This document shows, one piece after another, positions 13,525 to 55,390 of a stretch of DNA of 64,000 nt. Position 1 is the first letter of the stretch. Each line of letters begins with the position of its first letter. The stretch comes from a virus. Where the stretch lies: the IMG/VR virus record IMGVR_UViG_3300020183_000020, positions 1 through 64,000 of that record; one strand, 5' to 3'. The translations under genes and the position numbers were made by a program. The notes beneath the pieces were generated by a model. That model was not told the origin of the DNA. It saw only the letters and a list, made by a program, of their open reading frames with translations, and made no database searches.

Positions 13525-13950
13525 TTAGTGATACTGAACACCAAATGTCGGACACACATCTCTAATATCGAAACCCAAATCTTTTGGGTTTTCGTTCTTT
13601 TTAAAGTCTTTTAGGTCGTACCTGTACGATTCTACAGTTCCCTCGCCTATATTCTTATGTATAACTATAATAATGTTCTCAGACCATTCTTTTCCGTCTT
13701 CCGTGACTACTGCAACTAGTAAAAACCCTGCTCCTTTATTGAGATGGGGTCTAACAACATCCCCCCATTCAGGCAGTTGAACCTTTATTTCTTCGGGTGA
13801 GTTGAACATAAACCCCTTCTCCCCCCCCTCTTCTATACGGACGCTTTGAAGTAGAAACAAGAACGGAGGCATATCCTCAATTGGAGGGGCATCAGGCCCT
13901 AGAACTATTTCTCTCAAACACTCAAGTATTTCTTTATTGGTTGGGTTCAT
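13525..13950 (-). CDS. Hypothetical acidic protein, 141 aa
   Basis: I do not recognise the family. The N-terminal part is Pro/Glu-rich (DAPPIEDMPPF) and the middle is beta-prone (GFLLVAVVTEDGKEW, IIIVIHKNIG). GGAG lies 8 nt upstream; the segment gacatttaat occurs twice just upstream of the gene. It stands between the M15 peptidase and the tRNA cluster. Confidence 0.6.
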   Translation of the reverse strand: MNPTNKEILECLREIVLGPDAPPIEDMPPFLFLLQSVRIEEGGEKGFMFNSPEEIKVQLPEWGDVVRPHLNKGAGFLLVAVVTEDGKEWSENIIIVIHKNIGEGTVESYRYDLKDFKKNENPKDLGFDIRDVCPTFGVQYH

Positions 13951-14075: not shown

Positions 14076-14168
14076 TTATGTTCCCCCCCACTATACCGAA
14101 GTCCCATCAACTCTTAAAACTAAGGGGAAGTAAATCAGCCTACTCGGCTGACCACATCCCCATCTAAG

Positions 14169-14240
14169 TGGGTCCTCTGGGGCTCGAACCCAGGACCTAC
14201 GGATTAAAAGTCCGCTGCTCTACCGACTGAGCTAAGAACC
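14169..14240 (-). tRNA. tRNA-Lys(UUU)
   Basis: The anticodon loop is CTTTTAA. The T arm CTGGGTTCGAGCCCCAG and the D arm are regular. The acceptor has one mismatch (position 3:70). Confidence 0.93.
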
Positions 14241-14299
14241 CTTAGTGATCCTTCTTATACCGACTGACTTTGGAGGAAGCAAGAAAAAAACGCCTTCTA

Positions 14300-14644
14300 A
14301 GTAATAAAGTGACCCCCACTAATCGACCGAAGAGGATCGGTGGGGGTCACTTGAGGGTGAAGCTATGCCCTCGGTCTATCTGAGTCAACATGGAGCCTCG
14401 TGGTCAACTATAACATATTGCCTTATCGTCTAACCTACAGAGATTGAGGGTTCAGACTTCCCACAGTCTGTAGGACTATCTATCCTTGGTTGACCTTCCA
14501 CAATATATTTCAGGGCTAGTTAAAGCGGTGAGCTTTTGTGGGATAGATAGTATCGAAAAGACTCACGCCTGAGCTAGTAGCCCTCAGGCGAGGTACAAAC
14601 CTGCTACTAGGTTTAAGAAGCCTCCGTGCGGAGGACATTCTTAA
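14300..14644 (-). ncRNA. Ornate structured RNA candidate inside the tRNA operon
   Basis: The roughly 345-nt interval between tRNA-Lys and tRNA-Thr has no gene but many exact pairings. These are 13 bp at 14307-14319/14340-14352; 8 bp at 14566-14573/14583-14590, with its loop 14574-14581 pairing 8 bp with 14603-14610 (an H-type pseudoknot); 11 bp at 14475-14485/14541-14551; 8 bp at 14434-14441/14467-14474; 7 bp at 14402-14408/14489-14495; and 7+5 bp at 14613-14644. The strand is inferred from the flanking tRNAs. The setting recalls phage GOLLD and ROOL RNAs, but it is shorter and I cannot match it to a known class. Confidence 0.65.
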
Positions 14645-14717
<73 letters not shown>

Positions 14718-14855: not shown

Positions 14856-15323
14856 ATGGCGTATGTACGGAGACCTTGGACTGATGAAGACATCAAGCTA
14901 CTAAGAGCTATGGCTCAGTATTTACCTGCAACACTCATAGCGGAAAGACTAAATCGAGGGCTAAGTTCCATAAAGTTTAAACTATCCAATTTGGGTATCC
15001 GTTTGAGAGATCGCGGTTGGGTCTGCCAAGGTAGCCCACGACATTGGACACCTAAAGAAATATCCATTTTGAAGAGGCACGCAGGTAAGTTAACTTCTTT
15101 GGAGTTACAGAAGCACTTGCCCCAAAGATCAAGTAAGTCCATCAAGATTAAAGCTAGTGCTTTAGGGCTTACGCTTTTCAAGACCCCTTGGTCTTCCGAA
15201 GATTTGGATAATCTTCTCTCCCTTAGAGAACAGGGTAAGTCTTTTGTCGAAATAGCTAAGGTCTTCAAGAGAAGTCCAGAGGCTTGCAGGGCGAAGTACT
15301 CATACTTGACCAAGTTTGACTAA
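14856..15323 (+). CDS. Protein with three Myb/SANT-like helical repeats
   Basis: The 155-residue product has three similar units, each starting with W(T/S)xED or WTPKE and holding three helices: about residues 7-50 (PWTDEDIKLLRAM ... NLGIRL), 63-105 (HWTPKEISILKRH ... ALGLTL) and 111-153 (PWSSEDLDNLLSL). The spacing is typical of Myb-like DNA-binding HTH domains, so DNA binding is likely. The target and role are unknown. An SD (AAGGGG) lies upstream; the end overlaps the convergent protease gene by 4 nt. Confidence 0.75.
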   Translation: MAYVRRPWTDEDIKLLRAMAQYLPATLIAERLNRGLSSIKFKLSNLGIRLRDRGWVCQGSPRHWTPKEISILKRHAGKLTSLELQKHLPQRSSKSIKIKASALGLTLFKTPWSSEDLDNLLSLREQGKSFVEIAKVFKRSPEACRAKYSYLTKFD

Positions 15324-15952: not shown

Positions 15953-16025
15953 GGTTGAGTTATCCCTTAATAAAGGTTAAATACACGCAGGTACATGGAT
16001 AAATAATACCCTATGGAGAATGAAC

Positions 16026-17594
16026 ATGGCAGACATATTCGATCAGATCACAAATAGATATCTAAACGAGAAAACCGCCGCCCAAAATAAGTCGGCGGCA
16101 TCCGTGGCATCAAAATATGCTTCCCTCACCCAACCTCTCATGACCCGCAGAGACTATGGGAGTGTCCATGCGGAGAAGGCGGCGGCAGACTTCTTGGGAA
16201 CAACCGAACCCGCACTATCCGATTTTGACATGATGGCGGATGACATGATGGCGGATGACTTAGAGGCTGACAACGCGGTTCAGGTCAATACAGGTTATGA
16301 TAATGGTCTTGACTTCACAGGGCCTGGAAATGCCGAGGAGGAACTTGTTGCTTGTGGTGAGAATTGGTCGGACGAGGATATCCTTTCCATGGGTCTAGAT
16401 GATGGGACACTCATGGCTGACGATCTTGAGGCTGATGACCTTGAGGCTGATGACCTTGAGGCTGATGATATGTTCGCGGATGACCTTGAAGCTGACGATC
16501 TTGAGGCTGACGATCTTGAGGCTGACGATATGTGGGGGGAGATGGTGGCTGACGACCTAGAAGCTGACGACCTAGAAGCTGATTTCATCAAGCACTCTCG
16601 CTTCAAGGAAGGTCCTGAGGGTTCTAAGGCTTACGAACAAGCTAAGAAGGATGGGGATATCCCTGAAGAGTTCTTGGAGTATGAGGGTGCCTATGATCCA
16701 TCAAGTGGGGAAATGAACACACAAAGGATTAAGGAGAACAGGGAGTCTCTTGGGAAGACTGCGAGGAGGCTCGCCTCTTACGGAGATTTTGGCGGGATTG
16801 TCGATGATATGGGTTTTGACGATGATATGGGTCTTGAGATGGTGGGTGGAGGGGATGAGCATAAAGATGGTTCTTACATGAGCCTTCAGAACCTCCATGA
16901 GATGGAAGATCAGCTAGAGATGTTAACGGATAGTTTAGATGAGGGAGATGAGTTAGAAGATTGGGTTGAGGATAAGATTTCCCATGCTCACTCTGCTTTA
17001 TCCGATGTATCCCGTTATGTTGGATATGGGGAGCATGGTGCTCTCAAGGATAAGGAAGAAGATGAAGATGAGATCATTGACGACTTGGGTCTGCCTACAA
17101 AGGGAGGATACGATGAGACAAGCCATTTCAGGTTTGCCTCAGCTAGAAATATTAGGACGGGAAAGGAGGCGGGGGGTCTGTTTGGCTACCCAAAAGGCAT
17201 ACAAAATGCGGTCGAATCCGCAATTAGAAAGATCGAGAATAGGCGGGAATTACTGACAAGAGCGGTAGAGGATAAGTACCCCGAAGCGGGTACTTATTTT
17301 GCCAAAAGGTTTGAAACTAGTGGGTGTAATGCCGCAGGTGCATTATCCAAAACCTGTGTCTTCAATAAGGTTCCCGCAAGGACTCTTGGAGGGGGTTTGG
17401 GGTTTAAGCCCTCTTGTGTGAAGGCTTGCCAAAAATCCATTACGGACTTGATCCTTTATAGCGGCGAAGTATCTCATGGGTTATTTCTAAAGAATAAAGA
17501 TTACAGACCATTCTTGGTCACTTACGCCAAGAAGAAGAGATGCCCTGTAGCAAGGCTATTGCTTGAGACTATGCCTTTCACCATAGAGGGCTAA
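16026..17594 (+). CDS. Highly acidic protein with LEADD repeats
   Basis: The 522-residue protein begins with a basic/Ala-rich segment (IFDQITNRYLNEKTAAQNK), followed by an acidic region with many LEADD units (about residues 75-190). After another Asp/Glu-rich part comes a basic, cysteine-containing C-terminal domain from about residue 365 (SARNIRTG onward). GGAG 7 nt upstream selects the ATG at 16026. The size, charge pattern and helical head could suit a scaffold, internal head protein or DNA mimic. I see no family match. Confidence 0.65.
   Translation: MADIFDQITNRYLNEKTAAQNKSAASVASKYASLTQPLMTRRDYGSVHAEKAAADFLGTTEPALSDFDMMADDMMADDLEADNAVQVNTGYDNGLDFTGPGNAEEELVACGENWSDEDILSMGLDDGTLMADDLEADDLEADDLEADDMFADDLEADDLEADDLEADDMWGEMVADDLEADDLEADFIKHSRFKEGPEGSKAYEQAKKDGDIPEEFLEYEGAYDPSSGEMNTQRIKENRESLGKTARRLASYGDFGGIVDDMGFDDDMGLEMVGGGDEHKDGSYMSLQNLHEMEDQLEMLTDSLDEGDELEDWVEDKISHAHSALSDVSRYVGYGEHGALKDKEEDEDEIIDDLGLPTKGGYDETSHFRFASARNIRTGKEAGGLFGYPKGIQNAVESAIRKIENRRELLTRAVEDKYPEAGTYFAKRFETSGCNAAGALSKTCVFNKVPARTLGGGLGFKPSCVKACQKSITDLILYSGEVSHGLFLKNKDYRPFLVTYAKKKRCPVARLLLETMPFTIEG
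16408..16585. repeat. In-frame tandem repeats coding LEADD
   Basis: The 15-bp unit cttgaggctgatgac, with small variants (gaagctgacgac and similar), recurs about ten times in two main blocks broken by short insertions such as MFADD and MWGEMVADD. Confidence 0.85.
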
Positions 17595-25534: not shown

Positions 25535-25605
25535 ATCTCCACACTTATACCAAATTTAAATTCTCTTTCAATCTTTTTCAGGTTATCCGAACTACAAATC
25601 CGAAT

Positions 25606-55342: not shown

Positions 55343-55390
55343 TTATATGAACACTATACCACGCCGACGGGGGCGTTATAACATTTCAAA

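What the first reader, a model, noticed from the sequence alone, without database searches (positions are those of the whole stretch)
14300..14644. Ornate structured RNA inside the tRNA operon
The gene-free 345 nt between tRNA-Thr and tRNA-Lys contains at least seven exact stems of 5-13 bp, including an 8+8 bp H-type pseudoknot (14566-14590 with 14574-14581/14603-14610) and an 11-bp long-range stem (14475-14485/14541-14551). It is not an obvious tmRNA, RNase P RNA or group I intron. Large ornate RNAs (GOLLD, ROOL) occur next to phage tRNAs, but this one is smaller.
Basis: partly seen in the sequence, partly recalled or inferred. Interest (0 to 1): 0.85.

Follow-up and report, generated by a model that had tools for sequence, protein, structure and literature searches.

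The report
Structured RNA in phage tRNA operon
A large lake-type virus of bacteria carries, directly behind one of its tRNA genes, a roughly 340-letter RNA whose intricate fold is kept in a distant sister virus even though over 40% of the letters have changed, so it is a real and undescribed RNA gene whose job is not known.

Summary
The stems are at the stated coordinates and exceed chance (minus-strand fold z -5.3; 59 control windows reach at most -3.75). The RNA lies on the MINUS strand, the strand of the tRNAs. I found one diverged homologue, in a 290 kb IMG/VR phage contig at the same place: tRNA-Thr, RNA, tRNA-Lys. blastn barely sees it (E 0.03). A covariance model made from the window alone finds it at 45.6 bits, E 7e-10. 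In a structural alignment (57% identity) 63 of 72 window pairs also pair there, 16 by changes on both sides (random placement: mean 2.9, largest 10). The fold is a 5' hairpin, a pseudoknot, a three-way junction whose two arms are each tied to downstream sequence by a pseudoknot, and a terminator-like hairpin. A promoter-like motif precedes tRNA-Lys, so the RNA is probably the 3' half of the tRNA-Thr transcript, freed by tRNA 3' processing. No Rfam family matches; tmRNA, group I intron, GOLLD, ROOL and theta ribozyme are not supported. It is a real, narrowly distributed RNA family. A trans-acting scaffold role, as supposed for GOLLD/ROOL, is my best guess but is inferred. The family rests on two distinct sequences only.

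The parts
14300..14644 (-). structured RNA gene; 5' end directly after tRNA-Thr, 3' end at or just after hairpin H6 (exact ends inferred)
   Evidence: fold z -5.3; covariation with L017; CM hit E 7e-10
14613..14644 (-). H1: 5' hairpin, 14644-14638/14619-14613, first base after tRNA-Thr
   Evidence: 6 of 7 pairs kept in L017, 1 double change; L017 has a 7-bp hairpin 1 nt after its tRNA-Thr discriminator base
14574..14610 (-). PK1: 14610-14603 with 14581-14574, pairs the loop of H2 with sequence before it
   Evidence: 6 bp kept in L017 through an inserted A and a matching inserted U, no double substitution
14566..14590 (-). H2: 8-bp stem 14590-14583/14573-14566 whose 9-nt loop takes part in PK1
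   Evidence: 8 of 8 pairs kept, 5 double changes
14420..14562 (-). H8: 14562-14554/14428-14420, closes a three-way junction with H3 and H4
   Evidence: 8 of 9 pairs in window, 9 of 9 in L017; also in the window MFE fold
14475..14551 (-).
   Evidence: 9 of 11 pairs kept, 2 double changes, 1 change to G-U
14402..14495 (-). PK2: 14495-14489 (inside H3) with 14408-14402 (3' of H8)
   Evidence: 7 bp in window, 6 bp in L017; in register 3 pairs same, 1 double change, the helix ends slide
14434..14474 (-). H4: 14474-14467/14441-14434, with 3 more G-C pairs and an apical loop holding UCUGAA
   Evidence: 8 of 8 pairs kept, 2 double changes; 14 bp in L017
14379..14456 (-). PK3: H4 loop UCUGA 14456-14452 with UCAGA 14383-14379 in the H7 loop
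   Evidence: complementary but invariant in both sequences, so not tested by covariation
14359..14399 (-). H7: 14399-14394/14364-14359 enclosing the invariant GACUCAGAUAGAC (14386-14374)
   Evidence: 6 of 6 pairs kept, 2 double changes
14307..14352 (-). H6: 13-bp G+C-rich 3' hairpin, terminator-like; L017 has U8 shortly after it, the window has a weaker tail and U7 further on
   Evidence: 9 of 9 compared pairs kept, 3 double changes; the consensus terminator scan does not call it, since it allows loops of at most 8 nt
14645..14717 (-). tRNA-Thr (UGU), upstream partner in the transcript
   Evidence: same neighbour in L017
14729..14803 (-). tRNA-Arg (CCU)
14255..14261 (-). GGTATAA, extended -10-like promoter motif just upstream of tRNA-Lys; conserved in L017
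14168..14241 (-). tRNA-Lys (UUU), downstream neighbour
   Evidence: same neighbour in L017
13991..14075 (-). tRNA-Leu (UAA)

Best explanation
It is a stand-alone non-coding RNA gene of a large phage. It is transcribed behind tRNA-Thr (and tRNA-Arg), ends at hairpin H6, and is freed at its 5' end when the tRNA 3' end is matured. It folds into a compact, pseudoknotted, trans-acting structure. Shown here: a conserved fold on the minus strand, homology, and the Thr-RNA-Lys linkage. Inferred from sequence: the transcript plan (H6 as terminator, a fresh extended -10-like motif for tRNA-Lys, no CCA encoded after tRNA-Thr, H1 starting 0-1 nt after it). Guessed: that it works as an RNA scaffold or RNA-protein particle during infection, as is supposed for GOLLD and ROOL, with the invariant, partly unpaired segments around GACUCAGAUAGAC as the working surface.
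For: Homologue at the same site in a phage whose DNA polymerase is 87% identical but whose neighbouring protein is only 45% identical. 63 of 72 pairs kept with 16 double changes; random placement gives mean 2.9, largest 10. Co-located stem scan: 15 observed, largest of 150 nulls 6. Window-only CM hits the homologue at 45.6 bits, E 7e-10 in 290 kb. The comparative fold lies within 3.1 kcal/mol of the MFE in both sequences. No long open frame common to both. The GGTATAR motif lies within 30 nt upstream of 4 of 8 window tRNAs (0.014 expected), and all 4 such sites in L006 precede tRNAs. The homologue's tRNA-Lys is followed by an ordinary 26-nt terminator hairpin, so 340 nt is far more than termination needs.
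Against: Only two distinct sequences are known. The helix set was chosen with the homologue in view. PK3 shows no variation; PK1 has a paired insertion but no double substitution; PK2 has one double change. No expression data. H6 as terminator is weak in the window. Nothing directly supports a trans-acting role over a cis role.
Confidence: 0.6

Rival explanations
1. Cis-acting tRNA maturation element: an elaborate 3' trailer or undescribed self-cleaving ribozyme that makes or guards the 3' end of tRNA-Thr, in the manner of theta ribozymes next to gut-phage tRNAs.
For: In both phages H1 begins 0-1 nt after the tRNA-Thr discriminator base and no CCA is encoded. Theta ribozymes sit with their cleavage site at tRNA 3' ends (PMC10879173).
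Against: No Rfam ribozyme match at E up to 5 in the window or up to 3 in L017. The 5' end is U, not the G1 of HDV-like ribozymes, and the first stem is a simple hairpin rather than a nested double pseudoknot.
Confidence: 0.15
2. Decoy or inhibitor RNA: the phage RNA binds and blocks a host factor such as a tRNA-targeting or RNA-targeting defence protein or an RNase, which would explain its place among tRNAs.
For: Location in a tRNA cluster, narrow distribution, stable fold.
Against: No resemblance to a known target was found; purely inferential.
Confidence: 0.15
3. A chance run of hairpins, or DNA-level inverted repeats, with no RNA function.
For: Only two distinct sequences are known, both from metagenomic contigs.
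Against: Double changes keep the pairing; kept G-U pairs point to a single RNA strand; z-score beyond all controls; conserved position between the same two tRNAs.
Confidence: 0.03
4. A degenerate group I intron. The order H3 5' - hairpin - PK2 5' - H3 3' - H4 - PK2 3' has the same topology as P3/P7 with P8 between.
For: Topological match only.
Against: No Rfam group I hit; both flanking tRNAs are intact; the inner domain of L017 is a single hairpin with no P4-P6.
Confidence: 0.02

Closest known systems
GOLLD RNA
   Same: Phage or prophage RNA often near tRNAs, pseudoknots or loop-loop pairs, unknown function (PMC12286853)
   Different: Over 800 nt in many members; this RNA is ~340 nt and has no Rfam match
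ROOL RNA
   Same: Phage RNA often near tRNA islands with multiple pseudoknots and no known protein partner (PMC12286853)
   Different: No CM match; smaller; oligomerisation untested here
Theta (HDV-like) ribozymes of gut phages
   Same: Sits directly 3' of a phage tRNA (PMC10879173)
   Different: Far larger, different topology, no G at the putative cleavage position
tmRNA
   Same: Similar length, several pseudoknots, found in some phages near tRNAs
   Different: No tRNA-like domain, tag ORF or Rfam/ARAGORN hit
Group I intron core
   Same: H3 and PK2 are arranged like P3 and P7
   Different: No conserved core match, no P4-P6, does not interrupt a gene

Membership tests
GOLLD | match to the Rfam covariance model | tested here: not met
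   no hit at gathering score or at E up to 5; none in the homologue at E up to 3
GOLLD | length (many members exceed 800 nt) with a universally conserved 3' region | tested here: not met
   only 403 nt lie between the tRNAs; family size from PMC12286853
GOLLD / ROOL | phage-borne, near tRNA genes | tested here: met
ROOL | match to the Rfam covariance model | tested here: not met
GOLLD / ROOL | assembly into homo-oligomers through intermolecular contacts | not testable with these tools
   needs native gel, mass photometry or cryo-EM
tmRNA | tRNA-like domain and tag reading frame | tested here: not met
   ARAGORN and Rfam find none
HDV-like theta ribozyme | cleavage site at a tRNA 3' end | tested here: inconclusive
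   the RNA starts 0-1 nt after tRNA-Thr, but cleavage is untested
HDV-like theta ribozyme | nested double pseudoknot beginning with G1 | tested here: not met
   first base U, first element a simple hairpin; no Rfam HDV-type hit
Group I intron | conserved core by Rfam model | tested here: not met
Group I intron | interrupts a gene | tested here: not met
   tRNA-Thr and tRNA-Lys are complete on both sides

The most novel reading that the evidence does not exclude
A new class of compact phage RNA machine: a ~340-nt RNA with three pseudoknots, released from a tRNA transcript, that works by itself (as a self-assembling particle or an undescribed ribozyme) during infection by large freshwater phages.
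Probability: 0.25. Interest if true: 0.85.

Novelty: new variant of a known kind. Interest (0 to 1): 0.62.

Why it matters
Large structured RNAs next to phage tRNAs (GOLLD, ROOL) are widespread and their functions are open. This is an unrelated and smaller RNA in the same genomic niche, with a likely transcript plan and a compact fold that suits cryo-EM, probing and knockout. It suggests that phage tRNA clusters repeatedly host unrelated structured RNAs and gives a smaller model for asking why.

Tried and rejected
blastn against phages and plasmids gave no homologue. Exact-block scans of viral contigs gave only the two known alleles plus chance matches, none beside a tRNA. One scan of genome contigs gave two hits rejected by the CM and by lack of tRNAs. 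More distant polymerase relatives (L008-L013, L015, L052, L053, and the 485 kb record LR745208) have no significant CM match; L051 and L062 are weak chance hits. An AAGG...AUG start-like signal exists in both sequences, but the frame is two codons in the window (AUG UUA UAG) and much longer in L017, so coding was rejected (read from the sequences). My first compensatory count of 25 was inflated by aligning helices out of register; the in-register count is 16. Copies of the invariant blocks elsewhere in the window: no clear excess for AGACGATAAGG; for GACTCAGATAGAC 6 matches at two mismatches against 1.9 expected, not interpretable. Helix H5 of the MFE (GAGGG/CCCUC) was dropped in favour of H7, which covaries.

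Full report
What was checked. The 403 nt between tRNA-Thr (14645-14717) and tRNA-Lys (14168-14241), both on the minus strand, hold no gene. The structure is more than chance: interleaved 8+8 bp Watson-Crick stems within 60 nt occur in 6 of 5000 dinucleotide shuffles, there are four 11-mer complements against a mean of 0.01, and the minus-strand fold z is -5.29 against a minimum of -3.75 in 59 control windows.

Where it comes from. The window is part of a 110 kb IMG/VR record. A 44 kb IMG/VR record carries an identical copy of this region. A relative with 87% DNA polymerase identity is a 290 kb contig. Relatives at 68-69% identity reach 376 kb, and a 485 kb uncultured phage record, LR745208, has a polymerase 46% identical, so this is a large-phage lineage. 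The host is unknown. That the source is lake water is my recollection of the metagenome numbers, not a tool result.

The homologue. blastn of the region against the 290 kb record gave only E 0.03 over 36 nt, but the place lies between tRNA-Thr(UGU) and tRNA-Lys(UUU), as in the window, next to the same M15 peptidase and a shared unknown protein. A covariance model built from the window sequence alone finds it at 45.6 bits, E 7e-10 for that record (alignment). The same allele is in a second, 39.6 kb contig.

The conserved fold. A scan for stems that lie at matching places in both sequences ranks the terminator-like hairpin H6, H4, H2, PK2, H3 and PK1 at the top. Such co-located stems number 15, against at most 6 in 150 null shuffles that keep the conserved blocks. 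In an in-register structural alignment (57% identity, before one small adjustment) 63 of 72 window pairs also pair in the homologue, and 16 of these are changed on both sides. Placing the same number of substitutions at random gives a mean of 2.9 and a maximum of 10, and sliding the partners breaks the pairing (63 of 70 falls to 36 of 69 or less). By helix, double changes number H2 5, H6 3, H3 2, H4 2, H7 2, H1 1, PK2 1. PK1 is kept by a paired insertion. PK3 (UCUGA in the H4 loop with UCAGA in the H7 loop) is invariant and therefore only a proposal. A further helix, H8 (14562-14554/14428-14420), pairs two of the conserved blocks and closes a three-way junction with H3 and H4; shuffled segments match as well in 1-5% of trials, so it is moderately supported. 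The comparative fold lies 2.4 and 3.1 kcal/mol above the MFE in the two sequences. No long frame is shared.

Strand and transcript. G-U pairs kept in H7, and gained in H3 of the homologue, fix the minus strand. GGTATA(A/G), an extended -10-like motif, lies within 30 nt upstream of 4 of 8 window tRNAs (0.014 expected), including tRNA-Lys just after the RNA; all four such sites in 22.6 kb of the relative lie upstream of tRNAs. The homologue has the motif upstream of tRNA-Thr and again upstream of tRNA-Lys. The simplest plan is therefore promoter - (tRNA-Arg) - tRNA-Thr - RNA - H6 hairpin, then a new promoter for tRNA-Lys. The RNA begins 0-1 nt after the tRNA-Thr discriminator base and no CCA is encoded, so the tRNA 3' processing enzyme would also make the 5' end of the RNA. 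This part is inference.

What it is not. Rfam has no match in the window or the homologue, with permissive thresholds too; this covers GOLLD and ROOL, whose profiles are in Rfam (PMC12286853), as well as tmRNA, group I introns and HDV-type ribozymes. ARAGORN finds no tmRNA here. The resemblance of H3/PK2 to group I P3/P7 is topological only.

Function. No tool here can show it. I commit to a trans-acting scaffold or RNA-protein particle as most likely, because the fold is compact, has its own likely transcript end, exceeds what a terminator needs and shares its setting with GOLLD and ROOL, which form RNA-only cages (PMC12286853). A cis role in maturing tRNA-Thr, and a decoy role against host defence, are live rivals.

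Literature. Searches of the open library for structured RNAs in phage tRNA clusters returned GOLLD, ROOL and theta ribozymes but nothing that describes this RNA; subscription papers and preprints are mostly not held, so an earlier description cannot be excluded.

Limits. There are two distinct sequences only. The helices were partly chosen with the homologue in view.

Noticed in passing
window 14255-14261, 14091-14097, 25545-25551, 55354-55360 (minus strand); L006 5588, 15924, 17186, 18994; L017 1864, 1428: A TGGTATAAG-like motif (extended -10 type) sits just upstream of tRNAs in this phage lineage and is rare elsewhere; probable tRNA promoters.
   Followed up: partly
window 14645-14717 and L017 1773-1845: tRNA-Thr(UGU) has a C-C (window) or C-U (L017) mismatch in the middle of the acceptor stem (positions 4-69) in both phages (read).
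   Followed up: no
window 13528-13950 and L017 831-1229: An unknown protein without Pfam hit (45% identical between the two phages) was found only in this phage lineage.
   Followed up: no
window 16020-17594: A 524-aa protein with many tandem acidic 'DDLEADDLEAD' repeats and no Pfam match.
   Followed up: no
window 14856-15323: A phage protein with a Myb-like DNA-binding domain, divergently oriented next to the tRNA cluster.
   Followed up: no
L048 8978-9361: An unrelated IMG/VR phage contig encodes a tmRNA with tag ANKKSKVVSYDFTSREAVALAA.
   Followed up: no
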